Shown: positions 29,970 through 51,496 of the stretch, piece by piece | Numbering within the stretch: position 1 is the stretch's first letter | Layout: every line of letters starts with the position of its first letter | NCBI GenBank assembly: GCA_947500575.1 | Contig: CANMSI010000002.1 | Coordinates: 310,001 to 374,000, forward strand | DNA: 64,000 bases | DNA from: an uncultured Flavobacteriaceae bacterium | GTDB lineage: Bacteria > Bacteroidota > Bacteroidia > Flavobacteriales > Flavobacteriaceae | Direction: 5' to 3' | Notes under the pieces: model-generated | The model's database searches: none | Told to the model about the DNA's origin: nothing | What the model saw: only the letters and a program-made list of their open reading frames with translations | Made by a program: the position numbers and the translations under genes

Positions 29970-30710
29970 TTAAACAAAATTCACTTCGTCCAGATTGAAA
30001 TAAGAAATCCGTTTTGGTTCGCCTTTAATGGCTAAAGCTCCTAAATATCCCTTGGCTGGCACAAAAGAAACTAACTGCCACTTAGTTCTTTCGGAGAGAT
30101 CCCAATGTGTTTTTAAGAGTGCGGCATCCGAGTCGTTCTCCAAAGAGACCGCAAATAAGTTAAGCGGGAAAGATAATCCACTACCTTCTGCTTTAATAAA
30201 GGATTCTTTGCGTGTCCAGCAACGGAAAAAAGCTCTTTGCTGATCATCATTTGGTCTATTTTTTAAGGCAGTAATTTCTTCTTTGGAAAAGAAACCACTA
30301 GCAAGATCTATCGGATCAAAATCATGTTTAATTTTCTCGATATCCACGCCTATGCTTGCTGCATGCCCAAAAGCGAATACAGCCATATTTCCAGAGTGTG
30401 AAATATTGAATTTGAGATTAGTATCTACTGCATAAGATGGCTTTCCGTGGGAACTATAGTTAAAAGGTATGTCTGTCGGGTTGGAATTTAAATAATAACC
30501 AGATAACTTTCTGAGAATACCTCTTGCCGCAATAAATGCTACTCGATCTTTCTCAAAATGAAATTTTCGAGCTCTTTGTCTTTCGTCAGTGGAAAGCAGG
30601 CTATGATATTGTTCTTTATTTTTTTGATCTACATCTATTCTGGCATACCAAACATGAAGTGTATCTTGCTTTATAGAGAGTTGTTCAGTATTTACCATGG
30701 CCATGCTCAC
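29970..30710 (-). CDS. Sfp-type 4'-phosphopantetheinyl transferase
   Basis: 246 residues. It transfers phosphopantetheine from CoA to the carrier domains of the peptide synthetases. Motifs: FNISHSG, the Mg-binding GVDIE (Asp123, Glu125) and WTRKESFIKAEG (Trp165, Lys168, Glu169, Lys173). The start overlaps the end of the C-PCP-TE gene by 4 bp (ATGA), so it is the last gene of the minus-strand synthetase transcript and is dedicated to this cluster. Confidence 0.95.
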   Translation of the reverse strand: MSMAMVNTEQLSIKQDTLHVWYARIDVDQKNKEQYHSLLSTDERQRARKFHFEKDRVAFIAARGILRKLSGYYLNSNPTDIPFNYSSHGKPSYAVDTNLKFNISHSGNMAVFAFGHAASIGVDIEKIKHDFDPIDLASGFFSKEEITALKNRPNDDQQRAFFRCWTRKESFIKAEGSGLSFPLNLFAVSLENDSDAALLKTHWDLSERTKWQLVSFVPAKGYLGALAIKGEPKRISYFNLDEVNFV

Positions 30711-33121
30711 TGGGGTTCTTTATTTTTTACTTGCAGGCATTCATCAATTGCACTAGCAGCATATTGGACATCTGGTTCTTCAAACAATGTTCTATGGTCT
30801 CCATTGATATACATTTCTGTAACTTCATATTCCACTATTTTCTTCCAAGAATCTACCAATTCAATGTTCATGCGGTTGTTCTGTTTTTTGGTCATAATAA
30901 GCGTTACTCCTGTATCAACTGTTTTCCAAAGATATTGGTTATATAAATGAACCAAATGAGCTCTCATTTTTTCAATATTCTTTTCCTCCTCAGAACCAAC
31001 CATATGAATCCATATTGGTTTCACATAACGGTCTACTCGTTCCATGAACATATTTCTTACCGCTTTAAAAGGGTTGGAGGTAAGTCTTTTAACCAAGCCT
31101 GAAATGCGCATTTTAATACGTGTTTTGGTAAGTAAGTGTTCTTGTTCTGCCATGGTATCCATGACGATTAGGTTTATTTCCTTATCAATTTTCTTTAGAT
31201 AAGAAGCCATTTCTAAGCCAACTGCTGTACTAAAACAATAGACCATTACATTATAAATACCTTCTGGTTGTATGGCTCGTATTTCTTCTGCATAGTCTAT
31301 GGCCATCTGTTCTATACTAGTATGCATTTGTTTTCCATCATATACCCCTGAAGGCTGTAACGCATAAACAGGCCTGTCCTGATCTATGTAATTTGTAAGC
31401 TGGTTATAGAAGAAAACATGCCCTCCACCGGCATGAATGCAGAACAACGGGGCTTTTGAACCTTTGGCACGTATGGGCACAAGATATTTCCAAGATATTA
31501 CTTCACCATCTTTATTAAGTATGCTGGCAAGCGTTGCTATCGTTGGATTTTCTAGTAAAGTTGTTGGAGGTAGTTTCACCCCCATTTTTTCCTCAATCTT
31601 AGCAAAAAGTTTAATGGCGATGATTGATTTTCCACCAAGTTCGAAAAAGTTATCATGTACACTTATTGAATGCCTTCCAAAAACAATCTCCCAGATCTCT
31701 GTCAATTCCAATTCCACTTTATTTTTAGGTGGAGTATATTGAAGTTTAGGAGCTTCCAGGATAGGTTGTTTTGCCGAGATAAATTCTTTTTCTAATTCCT
31801 GAGTACCCAAAGTACCTAATAGGTCACCAATTATAGTATGGGTCTGTAAGGAAGAATTAGTAAGTATTAATTCCAAATTTTCTAATAACCATGCGATGGT
31901 TTTAGATGAAATAATTTCGGAATTGGTTATTAAATTTAAATCAAAGTATGTTCCTGTTTTAATAATTAAGGTAACAGGGTAGGTAGTAGTTAGACCACTT
32001 TTAAAGTCGCTTACGTGTATTCCACCACTGTGCATATCTTTCCAAGGAAAATTTTCAAAAACGAACAGACTATCAAACAAAGGAACGCCTTCAGAATGAT
32101 TGGTCCATGAAGTGATTTCTTCTAATGAGAAGTGTTCATAATTTCTTGCTTGCTGCTGTTGCGATTGTAATTTTTCAAAATATTCCTTCAGATTTTCAGA
32201 ATTCTCATAGGTAGATCGAACAGGAAGTACATTCATGAACATTCCTGTCATTAATTCAATATTTGGAAAAGTAGCAGACCTACCAGAAACGGTAGTTCCA
32301 AAACAGGTATCATTAATTCCAAAATATTTTGCCAATAGCAACGCCCAAATTCCTTGAAATAAAGAATTGGTGGTCACATGACATTGTTTTGCCAGAAGTT
32401 TTAAATGATTCGAAGCTTCTTCAGACAGTTTTAAATGCTGTTGTTTATAGGTTCCGGCCGACGCATTCAATGAAGTGGCAAATAGCGAAGGAGATTCAAA
32501 TGTTTCAAATGTAGAACTCCAAAAATCTATAGCGGCTTGTTTATCTAATTTTTGCAACCAATTAAGGTAAGTTTTGTAAGATGGAATTGTTTCCAAACTT
32601 ACTAGAGAACTATTTACAAGACCATTATAGGTTTCAAAGACCTCTTGAAGTATGGTACTAGAAGACCATCCATCTAACAGTAAATGATGACAACACCATA
32701 ATAAACAGTGGTTTTCGTGTCCTAATTTAATAAGTGAAATTTGTGAAAGTGGTCCTTTTTCAAAATCCACTCCAGTGTCATTTTTTTCTCTATCCAATGC
32801 AATCAATGCGTTTTTCTGTTCTTCATCGGTCAATTCGGACCAATCCAAAAGTGTAAAACGCATTTGACCATCCGGTCGGACCACCTGTAATGGATTCTGA
32901 ATGTTTTTCCAATGTACAGATGTTCTAAGAATGGGATGCCTGAGTACCACCTTTTGCCATGCATCTTTGAAATATTTTTCATTTAATGCACCCTTTAAAG
33001 CACAACTAACATGGAGAAAACCTTGATCCTCTTTATTCATCAAATGATGAAACAAGAGTCCCTGCTGCATGGTAGTCAACGGGTAAATCGCTTCAATTTT
33101 AGGTTTTTGTTTTGTGTCCAT
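30707..33121 (-). CDS. NRPS termination protein: C-PCP-TE, no adenylation domain
   Basis: 804 residues. A condensation domain (1-440) has the active-site HHLLLDG (His145, His146, Asp150). A peptidyl carrier domain follows (470-535) with FFELGGKS, Ser499 being the phosphopantetheine site. A thioesterase (550-800) has nucleophile Ser631, Asp655 and His776 (GDHRTLFEEP). The nucleophile elbow is CFSTA, not the usual GxSxG. No adenylation domain precedes the carrier, so this carrier must be charged by another protein, or the domain only passes the chain to the thioesterase. The gene sits 3 bp after the split-module gene and releases the product. Confidence 0.93.
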   Translation of the reverse strand: MDTKQKPKIEAIYPLTTMQQGLLFHHLMNKEDQGFLHVSCALKGALNEKYFKDAWQKVVLRHPILRTSVHWKNIQNPLQVVRPDGQMRFTLLDWSELTDEEQKNALIALDREKNDTGVDFEKGPLSQISLIKLGHENHCLLWCCHHLLLDGWSSSTILQEVFETYNGLVNSSLVSLETIPSYKTYLNWLQKLDKQAAIDFWSSTFETFESPSLFATSLNASAGTYKQQHLKLSEEASNHLKLLAKQCHVTTNSLFQGIWALLLAKYFGINDTCFGTTVSGRSATFPNIELMTGMFMNVLPVRSTYENSENLKEYFEKLQSQQQQARNYEHFSLEEITSWTNHSEGVPLFDSLFVFENFPWKDMHSGGIHVSDFKSGLTTTYPVTLIIKTGTYFDLNLITNSEIISSKTIAWLLENLELILTNSSLQTHTIIGDLLGTLGTQELEKEFISAKQPILEAPKLQYTPPKNKVELELTEIWEIVFGRHSISVHDNFFELGGKSIIAIKLFAKIEEKMGVKLPPTTLLENPTIATLASILNKDGEVISWKYLVPIRAKGSKAPLFCIHAGGGHVFFYNQLTNYIDQDRPVYALQPSGVYDGKQMHTSIEQMAIDYAEEIRAIQPEGIYNVMVYCFSTAVGLEMASYLKKIDKEINLIVMDTMAEQEHLLTKTRIKMRISGLVKRLTSNPFKAVRNMFMERVDRYVKPIWIHMVGSEEEKNIEKMRAHLVHLYNQYLWKTVDTGVTLIMTKKQNNRMNIELVDSWKKIVEYEVTEMYINGDHRTLFEEPDVQYAASAIDECLQVKNKEPQ

Positions 33122-33124: not shown

Positions 33125-35095
33125 TTATTCCAATGTGCTAAACAAACTATCTAAATCATCTTGATTTAGCGAGGTTTCAGGAAAATCTGATGGAGTGTAT
33201 TTCCCAGAATACGTACTTGTGCAATGTGCTATAATTTCTTTAAGATTCTCTTTAAATCGGGCAATAAGCTTTTCGATAGTTGCTTCTTCGTATTGAGTAT
33301 GGCTGTAACTCCAAGTTGTTTCTAGCACATCATCCACCAAGACAGCATTTATTTCCAACGCATAGTATCGTTCACTTTCTGGATGTCTTGTCCCTTGAGT
33401 AATGGATTTTGCTTTGATGGTATCATTCGCTTCAGAACTATTTTGTCTGCCCAAAAAATTAAATACGATTTCTGGATAAGGCACAGGTTCCAAAGATTTT
33501 TTGAGGTACCTTAATACTCCATAACCAATTCCGCCATTTGGTATAGTTCGCAATTGTTCTTTAACACCGATGATCCCTTTTTCAATACTTTCAAAAGCTA
33601 GTACGTCTAATTTTATAGGGAAGTATGCGGTAAACCAACCTGTGGTATTTGTCAAATCAATGGTGGTGCTATTTGTTTCTCTACCATGTTTTTCTACACC
33701 AAAAGCAACAGCCTTACTTTGACTCCAATTTCCAATAGTTTGCGTCAAAGCTGCAAGGAGTAATTCATCTGTTTTGGTTTTATATGCCTCATTTGCCTTA
33801 TCGAGAAGCGAGTGGGTGATGGATGAATTAAAATTTGCTGAATGAACCTTAATATCCTTTTCAAGCAAAGGGAGTATACCAACTTTATCCTTGGGAAGGG
33901 GAGTGGCATTGGAAGTTTGGGCTATCCAAAAACTTTCTTCTTTCTCCAATTCTACTGACTTAGCAGCCTCTTTTAGATGGACTGTCCAGCTCAATATCGA
34001 ATTACTCTCATTAGATGAAACAGTTGATCCATCAGACAGCGGCTGAAGTGCAGTTCGTAAATCGTCTAAAATAATTTGCCATGACAGCGCGTCCACCACC
34101 AAATGATGTGCAACTATAAAACAAATATCGGCCTCGTCATTATGAGTCTTGAAATAAACACATTTGAAAAGAGAACCTTCAGATAAATTAAAGCCGCTTT
34201 GGACCGCATCCATTTGTGCATCAATAGTTTGCTGTTGGTTGGTTGCATCTCTATCAGAAACATCTATATACCTTAGCGAATCTATTTCTGAAGGTGCTTT
34301 TATGTATGCTTTCCAACCATCATCTTCCATTAGAAAACTAGATCTTAAAGCATTGTGTTTTGTAATAATTGAATCTATTACCAGCTTAATAGTATCTTCT
34401 TTCAAATTGCGTATTCCCTCCAGTTGCATGGTTTGATTCCAATAGTGTGGCGCATTTTTATATGTTTCAAAAAACCAATGCTGTATAGGGCTTAAAGGAA
34501 GGGGTCCTTTAAATGCGGGTAGTAGATCGTTTTCTTTTACAAGTTTCTTTTGCTTATCGGAGAACAGCGCAATTTCGGCTATAGTTTGATGGTCAAATAA
34601 GTCGTTTGAAGCTAGTTCTATTCCTAGCTTACGTGCCCTAGCAATAATCTGAATACTTAATATGGAATCCCCGCCAATCTCAAAGAAGTTGTCATGAACA
34701 CTAATCGGTTTAAAATTTAATACCTCTTCCCAGATTTGAATCAGGTTTTGTTCTAATTCGCTACTGGATGCATTTACTTCTTCTTTTTTTGGTGGCTTTT
34801 GTAAGTTTTGCAACCCTTTCTTATCTACTTTGCCATTAGGAAGCAAAGGAATTTTATCTGTTACGGTCATAACAGAGGGAATCATATAATCTGGTAATCG
34901 CTCTCTTAGAAGTGATTTGATTTCATTAATATCTATAGCAGCTGCATCACCCTCGATATACGCTACCAAACGTTTTGGTTTTTCTGAAGAACTATCTAAC
35001 GGATGCTGATTCATTGTCTGCATTAATTTTCTTAAGACAAGACCGCGCTCTTCTTCCGAGAGTTGTTTTATTTTATTTTTTAAAGCTTCTCCCAT
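33125..35095 (-). CDS. NRPS: C-terminal part of a split adenylation domain, PCP and epimerization domain
   Basis: 656 residues from ATG 35095. A helical head (ALKNKIKQLSEEERGL) leads into adenylation motifs A9 (LPDYMIPS, 67-74) and A10 (NGKVDKKGL, catalytic Lys89) without the large A subdomain. Then come a carrier (NFFEIGGDS, Ser144) and an epimerization domain (His330, His331, Asp335 in HHLVVDALSW; GGIGYGVLRYL; VFNFLGRQ). The ATG overlaps the methyltransferase stop as TAATG, so translation is coupled. It must pair with the protein from 35903-38833 to make one working adenylation domain. The E domain predicts a D-configured residue. An in-frame ATG at 35137 would lie inside the methyltransferase gene. 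Confidence 0.92.
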   Translation of the reverse strand: MGEALKNKIKQLSEEERGLVLRKLMQTMNQHPLDSSSEKPKRLVAYIEGDAAAIDINEIKSLLRERLPDYMIPSVMTVTDKIPLLPNGKVDKKGLQNLQKPPKKEEVNASSSELEQNLIQIWEEVLNFKPISVHDNFFEIGGDSILSIQIIARARKLGIELASNDLFDHQTIAEIALFSDKQKKLVKENDLLPAFKGPLPLSPIQHWFFETYKNAPHYWNQTMQLEGIRNLKEDTIKLVIDSIITKHNALRSSFLMEDDGWKAYIKAPSEIDSLRYIDVSDRDATNQQQTIDAQMDAVQSGFNLSEGSLFKCVYFKTHNDEADICFIVAHHLVVDALSWQIILDDLRTALQPLSDGSTVSSNESNSILSWTVHLKEAAKSVELEKEESFWIAQTSNATPLPKDKVGILPLLEKDIKVHSANFNSSITHSLLDKANEAYKTKTDELLLAALTQTIGNWSQSKAVAFGVEKHGRETNSTTIDLTNTTGWFTAYFPIKLDVLAFESIEKGIIGVKEQLRTIPNGGIGYGVLRYLKKSLEPVPYPEIVFNFLGRQNSSEANDTIKAKSITQGTRHPESERYYALEINAVLVDDVLETTWSYSHTQYEEATIEKLIARFKENLKEIIAHCTSTYSGKYTPSDFPETSLNQDDLDSLFSTLE

Positions 35096-35886
35096 TATTT
35101 GACGGCTTTTATAACGGCTATAGAATCTGCCCACCATGTATCTTTTACGTCTTGTGGCATTTTTAAAGGAACTACTTGAACCGAGAATGAACTAAAATAA
35201 CGTAATAATAGACGTTGATGTTCTCTACTCAAAGAATCCACCTCGTTTGAAAAATAGGTAAATGCCCCATTGTCTTTTAAGTGTGTCTGTGCATATGGAA
35301 AGAAATGTTCAGCAAATGTGATACTTCCATTTACATAGCGCATGTATTCATCCTCATTTAGCGGATAGGTATGGAAAAAGATCCCATCAAATGTTCCGAG
35401 ATCATCAATAGTATCTTGCCACAACCCATGAACCAAAGAAATTTCTTTCTCTGCATATTTTTCTTTCCAATGGTGGTATTGATCTACCACGGCATCATTA
35501 CATTCAATAATAGTGTGGGATTGAATAGATTGCTCTTGAATTAAATCGGCAGAGATGCCTCTTCCAAACCCAATTTCTAAGATATCGCCACCATTGGAAG
35601 TTACTACCTCAGACATGGCTTTCATCACTGGAATTTGCCAATCTTCCATGATCTCTTGATCTTCTAATACTTTTTGCTCTCTATCATCCAAGGAATTAAT
35701 GGTGGCCCCGGGCACAAAGCTCTTAGTTTGCTCATGTAAAGCATTGATATCTGCAGTAAATTCTTTTAGGGCTCTATTTACTACAGCATTTCTTTGCGCC
35801 GCTCTTGGAGGTGCAATAAAGTCGTTGTCATTAAGTACAACTGTAACCTCAAAAGCTTCCGATCTTTTTATTCTTTTCATGCTCAT
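35095..35886 (-). CDS. GAMT-like SAM-dependent methyltransferase lying inside a split NRPS module
   Basis: 263 residues. SAM-binding motif I GGDILEIGFGRGIS (99-112) is followed by HTIIECND (124-131), GLWQDT, FDGIFFHTYPL and a late GAFTYFSNEVD. This pattern is that of guanidinoacetate / arginine N-methyltransferases and not of the usual NRPS N-methyltransferase domain. The gene is exactly where methyltransferase domains are inserted in interrupted adenylation domains (between A8 and A9), but it is a separate protein with flanking stop and start codons. The likely target is an amino or guanidino nitrogen of the amino acid activated by the split domain. Confidence 0.88.
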   Translation of the reverse strand: MSMKRIKRSEAFEVTVVLNDNDFIAPPRAAQRNAVVNRALKEFTADINALHEQTKSFVPGATINSLDDREQKVLEDQEIMEDWQIPVMKAMSEVVTSNGGDILEIGFGRGISADLIQEQSIQSHTIIECNDAVVDQYHHWKEKYAEKEISLVHGLWQDTIDDLGTFDGIFFHTYPLNEDEYMRYVNGSITFAEHFFPYAQTHLKDNGAFTYFSNEVDSLSREHQRLLLRYFSSFSVQVVPLKMPQDVKDTWWADSIAVIKAVK

Positions 35887-35902: not shown

Positions 35903-38833
35903 TTAAGATAGTTGCTGCAATACATATTTTTTTTCCTCACTATCCAAAGATGCCACGGAGTCTAGTAACTCGTTAATTTCTACTTCGGTTAGATAGCGTT
36001 CTAAAAGAGTCAATAATTCTTCAGGATCAGTACCATTCTCAATATGCTCGGATAGATGAATCGTTGCAGTTTCTGCCATGAGCACAGCTTTATCTACTAA
36101 TGGATGTTCTAAAATGACTTTTTCAATCTCATCCAATTCAATTCTATAACCACGTATTTTTACTTGTTGATCTAACCTGCCAAGAAATTGGATACAACCA
36201 TCGGATCTGTACCGAGCTAAATCTCCTGTTTTATATAATTTTTCACCCTCTGTCTTGCTAAAAGGATCATCCACTAATACTGAATTGCTAAGCTCAGATC
36301 TATTGATATATTCTTTCGTCAATCCTGGTCCTCCAATATAAATCTCTCCTTTAGCACCAAAGGGAACTTTTTCCATATCCGAATTTAAGAGGTATATTTT
36401 AGCATTTGCCACTGGTTTACCGATAGGCACTCCATTAATAATATCTTCCCTCAATATCTGATGCGCAATACACCAAACAGTTGCTTCTGTAGGACCGTAT
36501 TCATTGTATAATTTTACCTCTGGTAATACTTTAAAATGCTCTTTGCAAACATTAGAAGAACATGCTTCCCCTGCAACCATTACAGTTGTTAAACTTCCAA
36601 TGCGTGCACTATCCACATGTTCCAGAATTAATTGATACAGGGAAGGGAGCATTAATGTATGACTCACTTTATTCTTTTGAATAGAAGCTGCAATCTCTTC
36701 AATATCTTGTTCTATTCGCTTTTCGGAAATAACGAGATTACCTCCGGTGCATAGCGTCCAAAAAATCCCTGCTTTGGAACTATCAAATGAAATGGAAGAC
36801 ATTAGTAAAAAGGCTGTTGGATTCTGATCATAAAAATCCAAACGACCCATAGTGGATTGGATGATGTTCCGATGGGTTATTGGCACTCCTTTAGGCTGAC
36901 CCGTACTGCCCGAGGTATAAATAATGTATGCTAATTGATCTTGAGTAACAGTAGGGAGTGATATGTTATCCTCTGTTCCTGTAACATCTAATTCATCAAT
37001 GCAAATAATTGGGACATCAATCTCCTTAAAAAAGTCGTTTAATTTCGTCTCAGTAAGAATAATATCCGCTTTTGCATCTTCTAGTATATAACTCATCCGT
37101 TGCGGCGGATAATCAGGGTCTATAGGCAAATAAGCCTGCCCTGCTTTTAAAATAGCTAGAAGACCAATAATCATCTCCAAAGAACGATCCATACACAATC
37201 CAATGACACCATTCACAGCTTTGGTCTGTGCTAGCAATTTTTTAGCAATTAGTTCTGATTGCTGATCTAACTCTTTATAGCTAATGGATTTATCTAAATA
37301 ACTTACGGCATTTTTATCTGGATACTGTTGGCATATTTCCTCAATGATCTTGTGTATTCCTGCATAGTTTTCAAAAGGGTTTTGGTTCGCGGCATCCGAA
37401 TAGAAAAATAATTGCTTTTCCATAGCTGTTTCCATTGGGATATTGGAAATTATATTTTGCGGATTTTCTACTACCCCTTCTAGGAGTAGCTTAAAGTACT
37501 CTTGAAACCTTTGAATGGTTGCTTCCTTGAATAGATCGGTAGCATATTCAAAAGTGGCAGAGAGCTGTCCGTTATTCTCGGCAATGTACAAGGTAAGATC
37601 AAACTTAGATACTCCAGTATCAAAGGAATCATGTGCTAGTTCTAGACCTTCCCCAAAGTTTGGTGTTGGCGGCACTGCATGGTACAAGAACATCACTTCA
37701 AAAAATGGATTGCTGCTAAGAGACCTTTGCGGTTGAATGTTTTTTACCAATAAATCAAAAGGTACATTTTTATGAGTAAAGGCTTGCATGGTAGTCTCCT
37801 TTACCATTTTCACTAATGTTTCAAAAGACATTGATGGCTCCAGTTCCGTTCTTAGAACAACGGTGTCATTAAAAAAACCTATAATACCTTCAAGTGCTTT
37901 TTGATCCCTGTTGGCAATGGGAGAACCAATGAGAACATCTTTCTGCCCTGTATATCTGAATAACAACAAATAGTAAATCGATAATAGAAAAACATAAGGG
38001 GTAACATCCATCTTCCTAGATAATGCTAAAACCTCTTTAGAAAGACGAGGAGTAAGTTCTTGTACATTAAATGCTCCTTTAAAAGAAGACCGTATGGGAC
38101 GTTTATAGTCTGTAGGAATATCTAGTGGAGCTAACTCTCCAGACAATTTTTTCTTCCAGTATTCAATTCCTTTGGAACTTACTTCAGTATTTTGTTGCCA
38201 ATATGCATAATCTACATATTGAATTTCTGTTTTTAAAAAACCAGCCGGATTTTGATCTATAAGAGCGCGGTAATGAGCGGCTAGTTGATCTCTAAAAATA
38301 CCCATTGACCATTTGTCTGTAACAATATGATGTAGGGTTAATTGCAGTATGTGATGTTCCTTATGCAGTTGAATTAAGGATACTCTGATTAAAGGACCAT
38401 CCGTAAGGTTAAAAGAAAAGTTTGCATCAGCATGCATAATTTTATGCGCTTCTTTTTCTGCTTCAACCTGCTCTAAATGACAATAATTATATTGGAATAT
38501 TGGCAGTACCGCCTTTTCATTAATTTTCTGAAACACCTTGCCATCTTCTATTTGATAAGTAGATCTTAAAATTGCATGATCTGCATATACTTTTTGGAGG
38601 CTTTTTACCAAAAAATCAGTTTTTAAAATACCCTTTAAAACATATGATTCTGCATAATTATAGAACGTGTTTTGAGGATATAATTGCTGTAAAAACCATA
38701 AGCGCTGCTGCCCATTAGACAATGGGAGACGAATATTATCTGGTGCTTTTGAAATGGTATTAGAAGGAGTACTGGTTTTATTCCTGTTTTTCCATTTGCT
38801 TAGCAACGAATCTTTTGTGTTTTCTTTTTTCAA
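35903..38833 (-). CDS. NRPS: condensation domain plus N-terminal part of a split adenylation domain
   Basis: 976 residues. The condensation domain (35-460) has HHIVTDK (His168, His169, Asp173; the usual Gly is Lys). The adenylation domain starts near 490 with IIYTSGSTGQPKG, YNEYGPTEATVW, KTGDLARY and A8 KIRGYRIELDEIE (892-904), then ends after an 80-residue helical tail without A9 or A10. Those motifs are on the protein from 33125-35095. I read the specificity code as about DSAMMAEVW, which I cannot assign to an amino acid. The tail helix (EEKKYVLQQLS) and the head of the partner protein (LSEEERGLVLRKL) look alike and may form a docking pair. Confidence 0.92.
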   Translation of the reverse strand: MKKENTKDSLLSKWKNRNKTSTPSNTISKAPDNIRLPLSNGQQRLWFLQQLYPQNTFYNYAESYVLKGILKTDFLVKSLQKVYADHAILRSTYQIEDGKVFQKINEKAVLPIFQYNYCHLEQVEAEKEAHKIMHADANFSFNLTDGPLIRVSLIQLHKEHHILQLTLHHIVTDKWSMGIFRDQLAAHYRALIDQNPAGFLKTEIQYVDYAYWQQNTEVSSKGIEYWKKKLSGELAPLDIPTDYKRPIRSSFKGAFNVQELTPRLSKEVLALSRKMDVTPYVFLLSIYYLLLFRYTGQKDVLIGSPIANRDQKALEGIIGFFNDTVVLRTELEPSMSFETLVKMVKETTMQAFTHKNVPFDLLVKNIQPQRSLSSNPFFEVMFLYHAVPPTPNFGEGLELAHDSFDTGVSKFDLTLYIAENNGQLSATFEYATDLFKEATIQRFQEYFKLLLEGVVENPQNIISNIPMETAMEKQLFFYSDAANQNPFENYAGIHKIIEEICQQYPDKNAVSYLDKSISYKELDQQSELIAKKLLAQTKAVNGVIGLCMDRSLEMIIGLLAILKAGQAYLPIDPDYPPQRMSYILEDAKADIILTETKLNDFFKEIDVPIICIDELDVTGTEDNISLPTVTQDQLAYIIYTSGSTGQPKGVPITHRNIIQSTMGRLDFYDQNPTAFLLMSSISFDSSKAGIFWTLCTGGNLVISEKRIEQDIEEIAASIQKNKVSHTLMLPSLYQLILEHVDSARIGSLTTVMVAGEACSSNVCKEHFKVLPEVKLYNEYGPTEATVWCIAHQILREDIINGVPIGKPVANAKIYLLNSDMEKVPFGAKGEIYIGGPGLTKEYINRSELSNSVLVDDPFSKTEGEKLYKTGDLARYRSDGCIQFLGRLDQQVKIRGYRIELDEIEKVILEHPLVDKAVLMAETATIHLSEHIENGTDPEELLTLLERYLTEVEINELLDSVASLDSEEKKYVLQQLS

Positions 38834-40096: not shown

Positions 40097-40356
40097 AGCA
40101 TTTGTTTTGATGTTGAGAAATTCTTACTTGGAATTCAAATCTCTCTTCTTTGAAAGGAAATAATGATGCAAGTAAATAAAAAAAAACTGACTATCTAAAA
40201 AATTCCGTTAAAGTGATCGCTTTTTAGCCAAGCAAAGTAAAATAACCGAGAGATGATTCATTTTATCGATTCCTTGGGAATATCTACGGATGATGGTATT
40301 TAAATTTTCTATCTTGTGAAAAAAAACGCCAGTTCCCCTACCTTAAAATTGGAGTA

Positions 40357-44270: not shown

Positions 44271-44504
44271 ATGGAAGAAAAAATTGTAGCATTCGTGAAT
44301 GATCAGATTTCAAGCAATCAAACGGATGAAAAAATAGAGGCTCAGGACGACCTGCTTGGCGGAGGTATCCTTGATTCTCTTGGGATGATGCGCTTAATTA
44401 GTTTTATTGAAACTGAATTTGGAATTAAGGTGCCACCAGAGGATATGACCATTGAAAATTTCATAAATATTGAGACCATTACTGGATATATTTCTAGTAA
44501 ATAA
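44271..44504 (+). CDS. Free-standing peptidyl carrier protein
   Basis: 77 residues: a complete acyl-carrier fold with the phosphopantetheine serine Ser36 in GGILDSLGMMRL. It would carry the starter residue between the ligase, the oxidase and the condensation domain of the following synthetase, which begins 20 bp downstream. Confidence 0.92.
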   Translation: MEEKIVAFVNDQISSNQTDEKIEAQDDLLGGGILDSLGMMRLISFIETEFGIKVPPEDMTIENFINIETITGYISSK

Positions 44505-44524: not shown

Positions 44525-47500
44525 ATGACTCAAAGTAGGAAAAATGCTCTTCCGCTGACGCAAAGTCAGTCGTTAATGTGGACCGGACAGAAATTGAATC
44601 CGGAATCTCCCTTGTACAATGTGATACATACTTTTGACTTCACAGGAGCATTTCATGTATCTAATTTTCAAAGGGCTTTTCAAGAATTGATTGATAGGGT
44701 AGATGTATTTAGAACGGTATTTTTTGAGGAAGAGGATGTCCCTTATCAAAGTGTTTTGGATGTGTATGCGTATGAAATGGATTTTTTGGACTTTTCCTCA
44801 AAATCTAAGGACTTCTTAAACCATTTTATTAAAGAACGTTCCCAGGAGGTTTTGGACCTTCACAAACCTTTATTCGATGCTATTTTAATTAAAATGAGCG
44901 AACAAAGACATGTTTGGTATTTAAATATTCACCATGTCATTACAGATGCTACTTCGTCTACTATTATATATGATGTTATTGCAGATTTGTACAAGCAAAT
45001 TACCCAAGGCGAAGCTTTAAATGTAGAAAATGCACCAGCATTTAGTTCATATGTCCAATTTGAAAAAACACAAAACACAGCAAATGTATCGGATGCCAAA
45101 TCTTATTGGGAAGAAAAAATTGGGGCACTCTCTACGGTGCCTATTTTTTATGGAAAACAACGAAAACAATATACATCAGTTTCTAAAAGAATATCCTTTA
45201 AACTGGGAGTTAAGCTTTCAAAACAATTAAAAGAACTTGCCAAGGACCCATCTATTAGAGGTTTTACGGAGCATTTGACCCTATTTAATATTTTTTCTTC
45301 CTTACTCTTTGTATTCATCTATAGAATAAGTGGCCAGCAAACCATTGCTATTGGAGCTCCTTCTCATAATAGACCAACAAAGCGATTCAAGGAAACAGCA
45401 GGACTCTTTATTGAGATCTTTCCACTACTGGCTTCACTTTCAGAGGATGATACTTTTAATAGTGTACTTCAACGTGCAAAAATAGAGAGCAACGGTTTTT
45501 TAAAAAATGCACAAGCTGGATTGGCAGATGCAGCTACAAGCAGAAGTTTTAACGTGATTCTGAATTATATCAATGCCCGTTTTTCCGACTTGGAGGGTCT
45601 TGAGATGAAATCCAAATGGATTCATCCTGGACATTGTGATCCTGCACATCAATTACGTTGTCATATTGATGATTTTGACGCTTCGGGTGATATTGAAATA
45701 CATTTCGACTTGAATCAAGATGTGTTCGATGATGAATTGACGAAGAAAGTTCCCAATCATTTTTTAGCATTGGTGAGTGCATTTGTAGCCGATATCAACC
45801 AGAATATACATCAGCCTACTTTAATTGGTCTAGAAGAGAAAACAGAATTTCTATCTCAGTTCCAAAATAATGTACCAACATTTATTCCAATTATTAGGAA
45901 GTTCAAGGATACTGCCCAACTAAAGAAAGAGGCTACAGCTTTGGTCTTTCAGGGAAAGGAATTAAGCTATGAGCAACTTGATCAGAAATCCAATCAACTT
46001 GCTCATTATTTGAGAAAAAAAGGTATTGCAAAAGGGGATAGGGTAGCGCTGTATTTTCAACGCACACCTGAGTATATTATAAGTGTTCTTGCAGTCCTTA
46101 AAATAGGAGGAACTTTTATACCAATTCCGTCTGACCAAACCATAAAACGTCTTTCTTTTATAGTAAATGACTCAAACAGCGCAGTATTAATAACAAACAT
46201 GGATATTTCCAATAAGGATGTAGACGTACCTATTATTCCTTTATCGGATCTTATTGCAGTGATTTCTAAAGAAAAAGTAGAAGAACTACCTATTTCAGTA
46301 AATACAATGGACCCTGCATATATGATTTATACTTCTGGATCTACGGGAACACCAAAAGGAGTATTAATACCGCATGCAGCCATTGCAAATTATTTAAATT
46401 GGGCCGAGAATGCTTATGCGCATCAAGATCCATATATATTTCCGTTATGTACTTCCATAGGCTTTGATCTTACAATAACAGCCACTTTTTTACCCTTGCT
46501 AACAGGAGGCCAATTAGTAGTGTACAAGGAAAGTGCTCAGGGCCCAGATATAGCTATTATGGAAGTACTAGAAGAGAATGTAGTTAATAGCATCAAATTA
46601 ACTCCTTCTCATCTACATCTTCTCGCTGGAAAGGATGTTTCTCATTCAAACATCAAGACCATGATTGTAGGGGGTGAAGATTTCAAGACATCCCTCGCGA
46701 ATAAAATTCAAACTATTTTTGGAGCCGATCTTCGCATCTTTAATGAATACGGCCCCACAGAGGCAACCGTTGGATGTATTGTTAGTAAGTTCGATGCTCG
46801 TAGTCATTTGAATGCCTCCGTGCCTATAGGCAAACCAATTGCTCATATGCACGCCTATGTATTAGATTCCCATAAAAATTTAGTCCCAAAAGGAGTGGCA
46901 GGGGTACTTTATCTTGGCGGTATTGGTTTGGCGAGCGGTTATGCCAATGCTTCTGAAAGTACTTCTAAAAAATTCCTGGCAGACCCTTTTATAGAAGGAG
47001 CTAGAATGTATGAGACAGGAGACTTGGTTCGAATTAACAAGCCAGGTGAATTTGAATTTTTAGGAAGAGTAGATGAACAAGTAAAACTCAGAGGATATCG
47101 AATAGAGCTGGAGGATATAGAAGCAAATTTAATATCCCATGCTACAGTAGAAAACTGTTCCGTAGTTGTTTTGGAAAAGGAAAAGGTAATTCCTGAAAAC
47201 GAGGTCATTAATTGTATGGAATGTGGCTTACCCTCGAATTATCCAGAGACAGATTTTAATGAGCAAGGGGTTTGTCACATATGCACTGCCTTCAGAGGAT
47301 ATAAAGAAAAAGCACAACAATACTTTAAAACCAAAAAGGATCTAGTTGAGATTCTTAGCAAGAAACGAACTGAAAATTCATCTTATGATTGCTTATCCTT
47401 ACTAAGCGGCGGAAAAGATAGTACCTATGTATTAGCACAATTAATAGGAATGGGGCTTAAAGTTTTGGCGTTTACATTAGATAACGGTTATATCTCGGAT

Positions 47501-48658
47501 CAAGCGAAGGCAAATGTAGATCGAATTGTCTCTAAACTGCGGGTTGATCATATATATGGTACCACGGAGTACATGAATAAAATATTTGTTGATAGTCTGC
47601 ACAGACATCAAAATGTATGTAACGGATGTTTTAAAACCATCTATACTTTAAGTACGCAGATTGCATTGGAAAAACAAATTCCATTTGTAGTAACTGGTCT
47701 GTCTAGAGGTCAGTTTTTTGAGACTCGTTTGACCGAGGAATTGTTTTGGGATGAGAAGGTAGATGCCGCGCAGATAGATAGAACCATTCTAGAAGCAAGG
47801 AAATTATATCACCAGGAAGAAGATGCCGTTAAATCCCTTTTGGATGTGTCTATGTTTGAAAAGGAAGACACTTTCGAAAAGGTTCAATTTGTAGATTTTT
47901 ATAGGTACAGTGATGTAAGTCTTGAAGAAATGCTGAGATACTTGGAAGAGAAAGTAGGCTGGGTACGGCCTACGGATACAGGTAGGTCTACGAACTGTTT
48001 AATCAATCAATTAGGTATTTACGTTCATAAAAAACAGAAAGGATATAGCAACTATTCTTTTCCTTATAGCTGGGATGTGCGTATGGGACATAAGACAAGA
48101 ACGGAGACCTTGGATGAGATCAATGAAGTAATTGATGAAGGTGAGGTAAAAAGAATCATGAGTGAGATAGGCTATAGCGAACCAGCGGAGGAAGCATTGC
48201 ATTCAGAATTATTGGTGGGTTATTATACAGGAAGTCAAAAAGTTAGCTCTAAAGAGTTGAGTGCACACTTAAAAAAGGAATTGCCAGAATACATGATCCC
48301 GCAGCTTTTTAAGCATCTGGAAGAATTGCCTTTGACGTCCAATGGTAAAATTGATAAATCTGTACTTCGTAAACTAAATGCTGCACAATTAGAAATGGAT
48401 ACTCCATATATTGCTCCTAGAGGAGAAATAGAGGAGTTGCTCGCGGCAATTTGGTCAGAGGTATTAAAAATAAAACAAGTAGGTGTACACGATAATTTTA
48501 TTTCTTTAGGAGGACACTCACTTGCTGCAATTCAAACCACAGCAAGGATTAATGAAGAATTAGAAATAGAATTGCCGTTGAATAAAGTATTTGAATTTCC
48601 AACGGTTGAACAATATTCAGCATATATAGAAAACACCCTAATTGAACTTTTACAATAA
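44525..48658 (+). CDS. NRPS C-A-PCP whose adenylation domain is interrupted by a PP-loop (AANH/amidotransferase-like) domain
   Basis: 1377 residues. Condensation domain 1-440 (His136, His137, Asp141 in HHVITDA). Adenylation motifs: YTSGSTGTPKG (602-612), FNEYGPTEATVG (739-750), A8 KLRGYRIELEDIE (854-866). Between A8 and A9 lies a 300-residue insert (about 893-1205): CMEC/CHIC pairs (897, 900, 917, 920), PP-loop SGGKDS (961-966), CNGC (1032, 1035) and STNC (1158), close to N-acetyl-sugar amidotransferases. A9 LPEYMIP (1253-1259) and A10 NGKIDK (Lys1275) follow, then a carrier (Ser1332). The specificity code reads DLTKIGEVGK, one conservative change from the Asn code DLTKLGEVGK. The insert probably makes an amidine, thioamide or related group on the carrier-bound chain; which one is inference. 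Confidence 0.93.
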   Translation: MTQSRKNALPLTQSQSLMWTGQKLNPESPLYNVIHTFDFTGAFHVSNFQRAFQELIDRVDVFRTVFFEEEDVPYQSVLDVYAYEMDFLDFSSKSKDFLNHFIKERSQEVLDLHKPLFDAILIKMSEQRHVWYLNIHHVITDATSSTIIYDVIADLYKQITQGEALNVENAPAFSSYVQFEKTQNTANVSDAKSYWEEKIGALSTVPIFYGKQRKQYTSVSKRISFKLGVKLSKQLKELAKDPSIRGFTEHLTLFNIFSSLLFVFIYRISGQQTIAIGAPSHNRPTKRFKETAGLFIEIFPLLASLSEDDTFNSVLQRAKIESNGFLKNAQAGLADAATSRSFNVILNYINARFSDLEGLEMKSKWIHPGHCDPAHQLRCHIDDFDASGDIEIHFDLNQDVFDDELTKKVPNHFLALVSAFVADINQNIHQPTLIGLEEKTEFLSQFQNNVPTFIPIIRKFKDTAQLKKEATALVFQGKELSYEQLDQKSNQLAHYLRKKGIAKGDRVALYFQRTPEYIISVLAVLKIGGTFIPIPSDQTIKRLSFIVNDSNSAVLITNMDISNKDVDVPIIPLSDLIAVISKEKVEELPISVNTMDPAYMIYTSGSTGTPKGVLIPHAAIANYLNWAENAYAHQDPYIFPLCTSIGFDLTITATFLPLLTGGQLVVYKESAQGPDIAIMEVLEENVVNSIKLTPSHLHLLAGKDVSHSNIKTMIVGGEDFKTSLANKIQTIFGADLRIFNEYGPTEATVGCIVSKFDARSHLNASVPIGKPIAHMHAYVLDSHKNLVPKGVAGVLYLGGIGLASGYANASESTSKKFLADPFIEGARMYETGDLVRINKPGEFEFLGRVDEQVKLRGYRIELEDIEANLISHATVENCSVVVLEKEKVIPENEVINCMECGLPSNYPETDFNEQGVCHICTAFRGYKEKAQQYFKTKKDLVEILSKKRTENSSYDCLSLLSGGKDSTYVLAQLIGMGLKVLAFTLDNGYISDQAKANVDRIVSKLRVDHIYGTTEYMNKIFVDSLHRHQNVCNGCFKTIYTLSTQIALEKQIPFVVTGLSRGQFFETRLTEELFWDEKVDAAQIDRTILEARKLYHQEEDAVKSLLDVSMFEKEDTFEKVQFVDFYRYSDVSLEEMLRYLEEKVGWVRPTDTGRSTNCLINQLGIYVHKKQKGYSNYSFPYSWDVRMGHKTRTETLDEINEVIDEGEVKRIMSEIGYSEPAEEALHSELLVGYYTGSQKVSSKELSAHLKKELPEYMIPQLFKHLEELPLTSNGKIDKSVLRKLNAAQLEMDTPYIAPRGEIEELLAAIWSEVLKIKQVGVHDNFISLGGHSLAAIQTTARINEELEIELPLNKVFEFPTVEQYSAYIENTLIELLQ

Positions 48659-48676: not shown

Positions 48677-49135
48677 ATGAAAGGTAGAAAAAACATAAGG
48701 TCTTTGTTCTTAAGAAGAATAGCAGTACTAATTAGTATTTGCTATCTCTTGGGACCTTTGCATCAGCCAATGAATACATTTCTACATTTTGTGTCACACC
48801 AATTGGAGGCACCAGCACATATTCTGTCTCATGAAAATGATCTTGCAAATCATGGGGTCAATGACGACGAGGCACATGGTATGCTGGTCAATCAGGAAAC
48901 TCATGATCACCAAATAATTGATTTATTAGAATCGTTTTTAAAAACCTCCAATTCGAAACAACCTATAGAAGATTCCTTCATAAGTAAAGTGCAAATTGAT
49001 AAGCATAAGGTTGAGTTCTATGAATTAGTAATTCATCCCATAGTATACACTAACAAAACAATAGTTGATTCTAGTTCATATCTGCTTCTAAGTGGATATC
49101 AACGGAACCTTGATCGTCCTCCAGCTTCTCTATAA
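48677..49135 (+). CDS. His-rich small membrane or exported protein
   Basis: 152 residues. A basic head and one hydrophobic segment (FLRRIAVLISICYLLG) lead into a stretch rich in His, Asp and Glu (about 36-80: HFVSHQ, HILSHEND, HGVNDDEAHG, ETHDHQ) and a C-terminal polar region. There is no known catalytic motif. His-rich proteins of this size are often encoded before TonB-dependent metal receptors, as here. A role in binding or sensing a metal such as copper or zinc is inferred from composition and place. Confidence 0.7.
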   Translation: MKGRKNIRSLFLRRIAVLISICYLLGPLHQPMNTFLHFVSHQLEAPAHILSHENDLANHGVNDDEAHGMLVNQETHDHQIIDLLESFLKTSNSKQPIEDSFISKVQIDKHKVEFYELVIHPIVYTNKTIVDSSSYLLLSGYQRNLDRPPASL

Positions 49136-49217: not shown

Positions 49218-49231
49218 GTCCTATAGGACAA
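49218..49231. promoter_or_regulatory. 14-bp perfect palindrome before the TonB receptor gene
   Basis: TGTCCTATAGGACA, with CAAT on the left and ATTG on the right that extend the dyad after one unpaired base. It lies 30 bp before the receptor start, where an operator for a metal-responsive repressor would be expected. I do not recognise it as a known Fur, Zur or CsoR site. I did not find the same sequence upstream of the HupE-like or cyclodeaminase genes. Confidence 0.5.
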
Positions 49232-49261
49232 TTGAGAACGCATCATCAATAAAATTAATTT

Positions 49262-51496
49262 ATGAAAAAGTATATAATAGTAGGCATTTTCATCGCTTTT
49301 ATGGGAACCCTCAGCGCACATGAGCTTAAGGGAACAATTACTACAGAAGATGGTTTGCCAATAGAAGGGGCAGGAGTTTATAATAAGACCACTGGGGGGT
49401 ATACCTACTCCAATGTTTCGGGTTATTTTGAATTGGATGACATCTCAGAAGGAAATCTCATTAATTTTTATAGTTTAGGTTACGAAAAACAGGAAATTAC
49501 CATCGCTGTTAATCAATTGGATGCTACCATTGCTGTAGTATTAATAGAGGCGGCGGTATCACTAGATCAGGTAGTATTGGTCTCCAAAGTAAATGCGTTG
49601 AGTCATTTTGTGAATGTAGATGTTAAAGCGAATCCTGTAAAATCTGCCCAAGAAATCCTTAGAAAAGTACCCGGTTTAATCATTGGACAACATGCTGGTG
49701 GAGGAAAGGCAGAGCAAATATTTTTAAGAGGGTTTGATGTAGATCATGGAACAGACATTGCTATTAATGTAGATGGTTTACCCGTAAATATGGTATCACA
49801 TGCCCATGGGCAGGGATATGCAGATTTGCACTTTGTAATTCCAGAAACCATTGATAACATTGACTTTGGCAAAGGACCTTATTATGCCAATAAGGGGAAT
49901 TTTAATACTGCTGGATATATAGATTTAAATACTAAGAAAACCTTAGACGAAAATTTAATCTCTATTGAGGCTGGGCAATTCAATACACTCAGAGCAGTAG
50001 GCTTACTAAAGCTTTCTGAAGGTGAATACAGCAATGCCTATTTTGCCTCTGAATATGTACTCACAGATGGTGTTTTTGAATCACCTCAAAATTTCAATCG
50101 TCTTAATCTTATGGGACGATATAATTATAATAATCTGGAAGATGAGGAATTAACTATTTCATTATCTCATTTCCAGAGCAAGTGGAATGCTTCTGGTCAA
50201 ATCCCAGTAAGAGCAGTAGAACAAGGTCTTATAGGAAGGTTTGGTGCTATAGACGATACCGAAGGTGGTATTACAAGTAGGAGCAACCTCTGGGTAAACC
50301 ACTCCAAACAAATAGATGAGCACCAGCGTATTAAAACCAAAGCTTTTCTCTCCAAGTACGACTTTGAGTTGTATTCCAACTTTACCTTCTTTTTAGAAGA
50401 TCCTGTGAATGGTGATCAAATAAGACAGAAAGAAGATCGCACCATTATTGGAGCAGAAACCGTGTATGATCGATCGTATCATCTAGAAAACCATGATGCA
50501 CAGTTTAAATATGAAGCAGGAATTGGATTTCGCTATGACGATAACAATGATGTTGAATTATCGCGAACACGAAATCGAAGAGAAACTCTGGAACGCTTGG
50601 CTTTTGGTGATATCGATGAATTAAATGGGTATGCCTTTCTAGGAGGTACTTATAAAAACAAAAAGTGGACTTTAAATCCGAGCTTAAGATTGGATTATCT
50701 CAAATTTGATTATACCGATTTTTTAAGCGAACAATTTGATAATCAAAGCGAGAGTGATGTAATTTTGAGTCCAAAGTTCAACGCACTCTTTGCCGCTTCG
50801 CCTAATGTGCAACTTTTTGCAAAAACAGGAATTGGTTTTCATTCCAATGATACTAGAGTGGTTACCGCCGGTACTGGAGAAAAAACCCTGCCTGCGGCTT
50901 TTGGATCTGATATTGGTGTTATCCTAAAGCCCATAGAAAAGATGGTGATCAATGCTGCCCTTTGGAATCTGTATTTACAGCAAGAATTTGTGTATGTTGG
51001 TGATGCTGGTGTGGTTGAACCCAGCGGGAAAACAGCTCGATATGGAGTAGATTTTGGTATTCGATATCAATTTACAGATTGGTTATATGCCAATGCAGAC
51101 CTTAACTATACCCATGCGAGAAGTACTGAGGAAGCAGATGGCGAAGATTTTATTCCCTTAGCACCCGATTTTACATCTTCTGGGGGTATTTCTATTCAGA
51201 ATTTGGGAAAAGTATCTGGCGGACTAAGTTATCGATATGTAGATGATAGACCTGCCAATGAAGACAACTCCATTATTGCAGAAGGATATCTTGTAACCGA
51301 TTTTAACCTGAATTATAATTTCGCAAAAGGATGGTCCTTTGGGATCATTGTAGAAAATTTATTTGATGTTGAATGGAATGAAACACAGTTTGCCACCAAT
51401 ACGAGATTAATGAATGAACCAACTGGAGTAGAGGAAATTACGTTTACACCAGGGACGCCATTTTATCTTAGAGCCAAATTATCGGTAAACTTTTAG
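49262..51496 (+). CDS. TonB-dependent outer-membrane receptor, probable metallophore or metal receptor
   Basis: 744 residues. Signal peptide (IIVGIFIAFMGTLSAHELKG), a carboxypeptidase-regulatory-like domain (TTEDGLPIEGAGVY, YFELDDISEG), a plug with QEILRKVPGLIIG, FLRGFDVDHGTDI, VDGLPVN and SHAHGQGYADLHF, then a 22-strand-type barrel ending ...RAKLSVNF. It is a classical receptor (FhuA/CirA size), not a SusC. The His-containing HAHGQGY segment of this receptor subfamily and the His-rich gene before it suggest metal or metal-complex import. It closes the plus-strand part of the peptide cluster. Confidence 0.9.
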   Translation: MKKYIIVGIFIAFMGTLSAHELKGTITTEDGLPIEGAGVYNKTTGGYTYSNVSGYFELDDISEGNLINFYSLGYEKQEITIAVNQLDATIAVVLIEAAVSLDQVVLVSKVNALSHFVNVDVKANPVKSAQEILRKVPGLIIGQHAGGGKAEQIFLRGFDVDHGTDIAINVDGLPVNMVSHAHGQGYADLHFVIPETIDNIDFGKGPYYANKGNFNTAGYIDLNTKKTLDENLISIEAGQFNTLRAVGLLKLSEGEYSNAYFASEYVLTDGVFESPQNFNRLNLMGRYNYNNLEDEELTISLSHFQSKWNASGQIPVRAVEQGLIGRFGAIDDTEGGITSRSNLWVNHSKQIDEHQRIKTKAFLSKYDFELYSNFTFFLEDPVNGDQIRQKEDRTIIGAETVYDRSYHLENHDAQFKYEAGIGFRYDDNNDVELSRTRNRRETLERLAFGDIDELNGYAFLGGTYKNKKWTLNPSLRLDYLKFDYTDFLSEQFDNQSESDVILSPKFNALFAASPNVQLFAKTGIGFHSNDTRVVTAGTGEKTLPAAFGSDIGVILKPIEKMVINAALWNLYLQQEFVYVGDAGVVEPSGKTARYGVDFGIRYQFTDWLYANADLNYTHARSTEEADGEDFIPLAPDFTSSGGISIQNLGKVSGGLSYRYVDDRPANEDNSIIAEGYLVTDFNLNYNFAKGWSFGIIVENLFDVEWNETQFATNTRLMNEPTGVEEITFTPGTPFYLRAKLSVNF

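What the first reader, a model, noticed from the sequence alone, without database searches (positions are those of the whole stretch)
29970..51496. Compact NRPS cluster predicting a small pyrrole-capped, sulfur- or amidine-modified peptide
Reading the line in order: pyrrolyl carrier; C-A(PP-loop)-PCP with Asn code; C-A-MT-PCP-E giving a methylated D residue; C-PCP-TE release. The set includes its own activating enzyme and metal-uptake proteins and runs as two divergent arms from a shared 260-bp region at 40097-40356. I do not recognise it as the cluster of any known compound.
Basis: inference. Interest (0 to 1): 0.75.

Follow-up and report, generated by a model that had tools for sequence, protein, structure and literature searches.

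The report
Widespread asparagine-histidine peptide synthetase cluster
This stretch holds a complete assembly line for a small pyrrole-capped peptide built around a chemically altered asparagine and a histidine; relatives of the line, with the same two amino-acid codes and usually the same membrane transporter, occur in many marine and soil bacteria, and no product is known.

Summary
The cluster is real and complete (29970-51496; 260-bp divergent promoter region). The methyltransferase is not an NRPS domain but a separate guanidinoacetate-methyltransferase-like protein, encoded between two halves of a naturally split histidine adenylation domain. Specificity codes read Asn (DLTKIGEVG) and His (DSALMAEVW). 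The PP-loop insert resembles the "AMDH"/alpha-ANH-like inserts of Asn modules in cystobactamid CysH and albicidin AlbIV, so beta-cyanoalanine or isoasparagine is more likely than an amidine. A thioamide stays open, because three cysteines in the arrangement reported for the [4Fe-4S] thioamide synthetase CtaC are invariant (79-81 sequences). One genome scan gave 80 related loci in Bacteroidota, Balneolota, Acidobacteria, Proteobacteria, Verrucomicrobiota and Chloroflexi. Where readable, the Asn-type code was found in 77 of 78 and the His-type code in 43 of 44; a HupE/UreJ-type permease lies beside 51 of 60 loci with enough flank. Cap and tailoring vary (pyrrole set in 26 of 60). Best reading: an uncharacterised peptide family with a fixed [modified Asn]-His core, probably a metal ligand. 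The metal, the product and the Asn chemistry are inferred, not shown. No paper on this cluster turned up in 10 open-access searches.

The parts
29970..30710 (-). 4'-phosphopantetheinyl transferase (activates the carrier domains)
   Evidence: Pfam ACPS 4e-20, AASDHPPT_N 2.8e-12; 33% homolog at the end of the Rhodohalobacter cluster
30707..33121 (-). C-PCP-TE protein, no A domain
   Evidence: Condensation 5.9e-78, PP-binding 6.9e-13, Thioesterase 2e-13; same A-less layout in Rhodohalobacter
33125..35137 (-). second half of the split His module: A subdomain (A10)-PCP-E
   Evidence: PP-binding, Condensation/E (TIGR01720 3.4e-43); N-terminal helix LSxEERxLLL-type shared with other split loci
35095..35886 (-). 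stand-alone GAMT-like N-methyltransferase (263 aa)
   Evidence: no Pfam hit; PDB guanidinoacetate N-methyltransferase 8.3e-24; intact homologs in 6 of 80 loci, relics in 3 of 80
35903..38833 (-). first half of the split His module: C-A core (A1-A8), code DSALMAEVW
   Evidence: Condensation 3.1e-93, AMP-binding 9.7e-79; code; C-terminal tail seen in 14 other split loci
38858..40096 (-). HupE/UreJ_2-type membrane protein with long N-terminal part
   Evidence: Pfam HupE_UreJ_2 2.7e-46; present in 51 of 60 loci with enough flank
40097..40356 (.). shared divergent intergenic region, 260 bp
   Evidence: no conserved palindrome found over 38 such regions
40357..41427 (+). ornithine/lysine cyclodeaminase family enzyme, probably supplies proline
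   Evidence: Pfam OCD_Mu_crystall 1.3e-55; best PDB lysine cyclodeaminase 5gzi 286 bits, ornithine cyclodeaminase 1u7h 115 bits
41543..42694 (+). prolyl-PCP dehydrogenase-like flavoenzyme (pyrrole formation)
   Evidence: NCBIfam PigA 408.9 bits (cut-off 500) and ProlPCPDhRedW 356 bits (cut-off 650) as best two hits
42708..44261 (+). stand-alone adenylation enzyme, prolyl-type (code DIFYLGVQC)
   Evidence: AMP-binding 8.3e-79; PDB L-proline--[L-prolyl-carrier protein] ligase 6o6e 1.8e-68
44271..44504 (+). free carrier protein, 77 aa (pyrrolyl carrier)
   Evidence: PP-binding 1.8e-6
44525..48658 (+). C-A-[PP-loop]-A10-PCP synthetase, Asn code DLTKIGEVG
   Evidence: Pfam/NCBIfam; code
47213..48184 (+). 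AMDH-like PP-loop insert: tetracysteine ribbon C897/C900/C917/C920, SGGKDS 961-966, cysteine triad C1032/C1035/C1158
   Evidence: TIGR03573 1.1e-35, 123.6 of 203.2 bits; invariance; AF2 model pLDDT 91.3; nearest fold NASAT 8wex Z 19.4, rmsd 4.3, 292 aligned
48677..49135 (+). small conserved His-containing protein, function unknown
   Evidence: no Pfam hit; homologs in 33 of 60 loci with enough flank
49262..51496 (+). TonB-dependent outer-membrane receptor
   Evidence: TonB barrel 1.6e-20, Plug 4.1e-13; 45 of 60 loci

Best explanation
A complete NRPS cluster makes a small N-acylated Asn-His-type peptide. (1) Lysine/ornithine cyclodeaminase-family enzyme, prolyl ligase, free PCP and flavin dehydrogenase make pyrrole-2-carbonyl-PCP. 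(2) The C-A-[AMDH-like PP-loop]-PCP protein loads Asn, and the inserted domain activates the side-chain amide with ATP on the carrier, giving beta-cyanoalanine (dehydration) or isoasparagine. (3) A split C-A / A10-PCP-E pair adds histidine and epimerises it; a separate GAMT-like enzyme probably N-methylates it. (4) A C-PCP-TE protein with no A domain adds an unassigned last unit, or simply passes the chain on, and releases it. (5) The product probably binds a transition metal (pyrrole N, two backbone N and the His side chain resemble a four-nitrogen Cu/Ni site) and is recovered through the TonB receptor and HupE. Shown: domain content, codes, conservation. Inferred: product, Asn chemistry, methylation site, metal function.
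For: Domains and codes. Core conservation: in 80 loci the PP-loop is embedded between A core and A10-PCP in one ORF in 74; Asn-type code in 77 of 78 readable (2 of the 77 are partial readings) and His-type in 43 of 44 readable. Roseovarius plasmid: one 2682-aa C-A-PPL-PCP-C-A-PCP-TE protein with prolyl-A, dehydrogenase, PCP and HupE/UreJ beside it. AMDH precedent: CysH dehydrates carrier-bound Asn, and its homologs sit in Asn A domains with SGGKD (passages of PMC7966384); AlbIV has a 342-aa alpha-ANH-like insert. DSALIAEVWK is listed as His and DLTKIGEVGK as Asn/cyanoalanine in PMC12283262. HupE 51 of 60 and TBDR 45 of 60 loci.
Against: The curated family nearest the insert is an amidine-forming sugar amidotransferase (TIGR03573), as is the nearest fold. 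The cysteine triad matches a thioamide synthetase. I could not compare the insert directly with CysH or AlbIV sequences. HupE homologs are common without any NRPS, so metal uptake is not proven, and no metal-regulator motif was found. Pyrrole enzymes are absent from 34 of 60 well-flanked loci, so the cap is not part of the conserved core. L096 has the insert but no His module, HupE or cap genes. TBDR similarity to known metallophore receptors is weak (CntO 24 bits).
Confidence: 0.5

Rival explanations
1. The PP-loop domain is an NRPS thioamide synthetase like CtaC: a [4Fe-4S] cluster on C1032, C1035, C1158 delivers sulfur to an adenylated amide, giving thio-asparagine or a thioamide backbone, a good soft-metal ligand.
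For: Triad invariant in 81/81, 81/81 and 79/79 aligned sequences, with spacing close to CtaC C154/C157/C284 (123 vs 127 residues between second and third Cys; CtaC numbers from PMC6772006). Family profile's best PDB hit is MmLarE with a [4Fe-4S] cluster, E 1.7e-9 (title).
Against: The insert is tied to an Asn-specific A domain, as in CysH/AlbIV, where the shown product is a nitrile or isoAsn. Triad cysteines also occur in a subset of sugar-amidotransferase-like proteins, so they do not prove sulfur transfer. CysH was dark brown when purified, so an Fe-S cluster may belong to dehydration or isomerisation too. I saw no sulfur-carrier gene in the window cluster.
Confidence: 0.22
2. The insert is an amidotransferase like WbuX/LpNASAT: it turns the Asn amide into an amidine with ammonia.
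For: TIGR03573 gives by far the strongest curated-model scores, in 34 of 34 members; closest fold 8wex.
Against: Score is 123.6 bits against a cut-off of 203.2. No HisH/HisF-like ammonia source is in the window cluster. 8wex lacks the cysteine triad at the aligned positions.
Confidence: 0.1
3. The product is not a metallophore but an antibiotic, signal or alga-active metabolite; the TonB receptor and HupE are for self-uptake, export or something unrelated.
For: HupE is kept even in clusters where no TonB receptor is in view (Roseovarius, Acidobacteria), and several HupE homologs sit next to DUF4331 genes with no metallophore genes. AMDH relatives make topoisomerase inhibitors.
Against: A receptor beside 45 of 60 loci is a usual sign of re-uptake; His plus backbone N is a standard Cu/Ni site (recalled).
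Confidence: 0.3
4. The split His A domain is an assembly or frameshift artefact.
For: Normally one polypeptide; fused in 30 of 44 judgeable loci.
Against: The same split, at the same place and with matching helical tails, occurs in 14 other loci from separate genomes, and in six of these an MT gene or relic lies in the gap.
Confidence: 0.03

Closest known systems
Cystobactamid CysH (AMDH domain)
   Same: PP-loop (SGGKD) insert in an Asn-activating NRPS module; homologs reported only in Asn A domains
   Different: CysH is a stand-alone module feeding a p-aminobenzoate line; no His module, pyrrole, HupE or TonB receptor in what I read. Read as passages only
Albicidin AlbIV alpha-ANH-like insert
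   Same: 342-aa insert, Asn-activating module, code DLTKIGEVGK, product beta-cyanoalanine (passages)
   Different: different assembly line and product class; sequence not compared here
Closthioamide CtaC
   Same: PP-loop enzyme acting on carrier-bound peptide; CxxC plus distant Cys triad, similar spacing
   Different: stand-alone protein, NRPS-independent pathway; thioamides (PMC6772006, parts 1-2 of 3 read)
N-acetyl sugar amidotransferase family (TIGR03573, LpNASAT 8wex)
   Same: tetracysteine ribbon plus PP-loop; nearest curated model and fold
   Different: acts on sugars, not embedded in NRPS; window insert scores below the curated cut-off
Prodigiosin/undecylprodigiosin pyrrole set (PigA/RedW, prolyl-carrier ligase)
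   Same: same three-part pyrrole-forming logic
   Different: below equivalog cut-offs; extra cyclodeaminase-family gene
Guanidinoacetate N-methyltransferase
   Same: E 8.3e-24 over the SAM-binding half
   Different: the aligned Asp of the YDTYPL motif is His in 7 of 7 intact homologs, and the second Glu of the MERWE motif is Gln or Leu; that these two acids bind guanidine is recalled. So probably another substrate

Membership tests
AMDH-type insert of Asn modules (CysH/AlbIV) | inserted in an A domain with Asn code | tested here: met
   window code DLTKIGEVG; 74 of 80 inserts between A core and A10-PCP in one ORF, Asn-type code 77 of 78 readable
AMDH-type insert of Asn modules (CysH/AlbIV) | ATP-binding SGGKD motif and about 340 aa | tested here: met
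   SGGKDS 81/81; about 325-335 aa between A core and A10
AMDH-type insert of Asn modules (CysH/AlbIV) | sequence homology to CysH/AlbIV inserts | not tested
   CysH not reached with the genomes available; AlbIV deliberately not fetched
AMDH-type insert of Asn modules (CysH/AlbIV) | dehydration or isomerisation of carrier-bound Asn | not testable with these tools
   needs intact-protein MS
CtaC-type thioamide synthetase | PP-loop plus [4Fe-4S] cysteine triad | tested here: met
   residues present and invariant; cluster binding itself untested
CtaC-type thioamide synthetase | sulfur insertion | not testable with these tools
   needs assay with sulfide and ATP
N-acetyl sugar amidotransferase TIGR03573 | curated cut-off 203.2 bits | tested here: not met
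   123.6 bits
Pyrrole-2-carboxyl cap pathway | prolyl-A, free PCP, prolyl-PCP dehydrogenase | tested here: met
   all three present and adjacent; dehydrogenase below equivalog cut-offs
His-activating A domain | specificity code as published for His | tested here: met
   DSALMAEVW, one letter from DSALIAEVWK listed as His in PMC12283262; substrate not assayed
Guanidinoacetate methyltransferase | acidic guanidine-binding residues (recalled) | tested here: not met
   replaced by Gln or Leu, and by His, in 7 of 7
NRPS metallophore cluster | known chelating group or metal-regulated transport | tested here: inconclusive
   TonB receptor and HupE present; no regulator motif; chelation only inferred

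The most novel reading that the evidence does not exclude
A multi-phylum family of small peptide metal ligands built on an invariant [AMDH-modified Asn]-His core with exchangeable caps, made by a synthetase whose PP-loop insert is an iron-sulfur enzyme (CtaC/TtuA-type triad), whose His adenylation domain is in some lineages naturally split into two proteins joined by paired helical tails, and whose uptake uses a HupE-type permease.
Probability: 0.3. Interest if true: 0.78.

Novelty: new variant of a known kind. Interest (0 to 1): 0.6.

Why it matters
Homologs of the AMDH insert were reported in 'numerous' clusters without known products (PMC7966384, passages). This work gives such clusters a shared, testable prediction: cap-[modified Asn]-His with HupE, in culturable type strains such as Zobellia and Arenibacter. 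It also offers a lead on the AMDH enzymology left open in that paper: an invariant cysteine triad that could hold the iron that would explain the brown colour of CysH. A naturally split adenylation domain with conserved tails would also be useful for understanding and engineering NRPS.

Tried and rejected
Rejected: MT as embedded NRPS domain. Tried without result: conserved palindrome or operator in 38 divergent promoter regions (only weak A/T-rich repeats); naming the metal from HupE neighbours on plasmids (DUF4331, transposase, TonB receptor, no metal clue); relatives of the insert in viral contigs (none by tblastn); recurrent extra genes in the flanks (a UDP-glycosyltransferase-like gene in 18 of 80 loci and a sulfotransferase-like gene in 6 of 80, none in the window cluster; the first count was full of antisense frames and was dropped). 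The Streptomyces plasmid insert (38%) lies in a different neighbourhood. The treekit tree (41 rows) separates inserts from sugar-amidotransferase-like proteins, but many inner forks are weak and I use it only to name the nearest relatives. A point on rarity: in 395 genomes of the window's phylum only G297 besides the window's own genome has a strong match (the matches of the other 20 genomes are 23-38% identical), so the family is accessory; the MT is essentially absent from 99 relatives (2 of 99, one of them the window itself, the other E 7e-4).

Papers, what I saw: PMC12283262, PMC7966384, PMC8949500, PMC10607449, PMC12914433 by passages; PMC12971057 by a term search with no hit; PMC6772006 parts 1-2 of 3; all others as search listings. 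'No paper on this cluster' rests in an open-licence library only. That a naturally split A domain is unusual is recalled; I did not search for it.
Full report
What is there. Minus arm, from the gap: HupE/UreJ_2, C-A core, a 263-aa methyltransferase, A10-PCP-E, C-PCP-TE, PPTase. Plus arm: cyclodeaminase-family enzyme, PigA/RedW-like dehydrogenase, stand-alone prolyl-type A, 77-aa PCP, C-A-[PP-loop]-A10-PCP, a small protein, a TonB receptor. The window lies in a 4.2-Mb genome; the insert's closest relatives are Flavobacteriaceae.

The methyltransferase. It has no Pfam hit, but matches guanidinoacetate N-methyltransferase structures (3orh, E 8.3e-24). It is a free protein: in Rhodohalobacter the C-A-PCP-E protein is one 1505-aa ORF and the 68%-identical MT gene lies after the PP-loop synthetase. 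Intact homologs occur in 6 of 80 loci and relics with the SAM-binding core missing in 3 of 80, so it is dispensable. The Asp of GAMT's YDTYPL motif is His in 7 of 7 intact sequences, so a guanidine substrate is unlikely. Methylation of histidine is my inference from its place between the His-module halves.

A split adenylation domain. In the window the His A domain is cut after A8 into two proteins. Of 44 loci where this can be judged, 14 have the same split and 30 are fused; 2 more are cut or unclear and 34 have no second synthetase in view. The A-core ORFs end in a tail, most of the type LLxxVxxLxxEEKxxLLxQ; the partner ORFs begin with LxxRIxxLSxEERKLLLxR-like stretches (partner in view in 13 of 14). 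That these are helices that pair is inferred. In six split loci an MT gene or relic lies in the gap; in seven no gene does.

Codes. By motif anchors the window reads DLTKIGEVG (Asn module), DSALMAEVW (second module) and DIFYLGVQC (prolyl-type). PMC12283262 (passages) lists DSALIAEVWK as His and DLTKIGEVGK as Asn and beta-cyanoalanine, the latter only in albicidin. In the 80 loci of the single genome scan (86 relatives found, best 80 kept) the first code was readable in 78: 75 full Asn-type codes, 2 partial readings of the same type, 1 odd reading (L073). The second was readable in 44: 43 His-type and one not (L096, with Pro- and Cys-like modules).

The PP-loop insert. It is embedded between A core and A10-PCP in one ORF in 74 of 80 loci; the other six are cut or broken frames. 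Invariant or nearly so: the tetracysteine ribbon, SGGKDS, C1032, C1035, C1158 (81 sequences, 79 at the last site). The curated model nearest to it is the sugar amidotransferase TIGR03573 (34 of 34 members; window 123.6 bits, cut-off 203.2). With a family profile the best PDB match is MmLarE (E 1.7e-9). The AF2 model (pLDDT 91.3) matches LpNASAT best (Z 19.4, rmsd 4.3, 292 residues; next rows Z 10.5-11.9, many tied: NAD synthetase, LarE, nitrile synthetase ArtA, TtuA, NcsA). One subset of amidotransferase-like proteins keeps the triad (L007, L008, L014, L016, L011) and another lacks it (L012, L025), as does 8wex at the aligned positions. So homology does not settle the chemistry.

Precedent decides the ranking. 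PMC7966384 (passages): the AMDH domain of CysH, inserted in an Asn A domain, dehydrates carrier-bound Asn to beta-cyanoalanine or isomerises it to isoasparagine; its homologs sit only in Asn A domains and share SGGKD; CysH is dark brown and the mechanism is unknown. AlbIV has a 342-aa alpha-ANH-like insert and yields cyanoalanine (PMC8949500, PMC12283262). Position, size, code and motif all agree with the window. I did not align the sequences. PMC6772006 (parts 1-2 of 3) reports a [4Fe-4S] triad C154/C157/C284 for the thioamide synthetase CtaC, spaced much like C1032/C1035/C1158; hence thioamide is the main rival, and an Fe-S cluster in AMDH enzymes is a testable idea.

Distribution. Loci come from Flavobacteriaceae (most), Saprospiraceae and other Bacteroidota, Balneolota, Acidobacteria, Verrucomicrobiota (Opitutales), Thiomargarita, Methyloprofundus, Tateyamaria, an Eremiobacterota bin and Chloroflexi (labels), many of them metagenome bins. 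Two Roseobacter-group plasmid records carry a compact form, the one annotated in full with a single 2682-aa synthetase beside HupE, PCP, dehydrogenase, prolyl-A and an unrelated-looking methyltransferase. Among 60 loci with enough flank: HupE 51, TBDR 45, prolyl-type A 44, dehydrogenase 26, cyclodeaminase 18, small protein 33, MT 8 (two of them relics). So the pyrrole cap of the window is one of several caps; Asn-His and HupE are the constant part. Even sampling shows rarity: 2 of 395 phylum genomes with a strong match, one of them the window's own.

Function. A pyrrole-CO-Xaa-His chain could offer pyrrole N, two deprotonated amide N and imidazole N, like the amino-terminal Cu/Ni motif (recalled chemistry). 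With TonB receptor and HupE this suggests a metal ligand. Against it: HupE homologs are widespread without NRPS (123 plasmid records with a match), their neighbours do not name a metal, and no operator was found. I hold the metallophore reading at about two in three and the Asn chemistry as nitrile/isoAsn first, thioamide second, amidine third.

Verdict. A real, intact member of an uncharacterised family: known kinds of parts, an unreported combination as far as my searches reach. New variant of a known kind.

Noticed in passing
window 35903-38833 and 33125-35137: Naturally split adenylation domain with conserved tails; same split in 14 of 44 judgeable loci.
   Followed up: partly
L044:2252-2512, L068:544-738, L086:6001-6138: Relics of the GAMT-like methyltransferase with the SAM-binding core missing: the gene is being lost in several lineages.
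   Followed up: yes
L096 (Eremiobacterota bin): AMDH-like insert in a different synthetase with Pro- and Cys-like modules, no HupE or cap genes in view: a second product type.
   Followed up: no
L138 (G821:C191:22380-23342): Second AMDH-like insert in the same genome, in a 2573-aa frame.
   Followed up: no
L126 (Streptomyces plasmid NZ_CP108680.1): 38%-identical insert at the start of a protein with a C domain, next to an asnB gene, with a tyrosine aminomutase gene further on.
   Followed up: no
L034:3-1319, L090:11435-12742, L105:15736-17010: UDP-glycosyltransferase-like gene near 18 of 80 loci, and sulfotransferase-like genes near 6 of 80: tailoring variants.
   Followed up: partly
L127, L128, L129 (plasmids): HupE/UreJ_2 homologs repeatedly follow DUF4331 genes and short hypothetical genes; function unclear.
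   Followed up: no
window 51509-52672: DUF819 protein gene on the minus strand right after the TonB receptor.
   Followed up: no
window 28860-29953: Sigma-70-like factor (28860-29345) and a small membrane-like protein just beyond the PPTase end.
   Followed up: no
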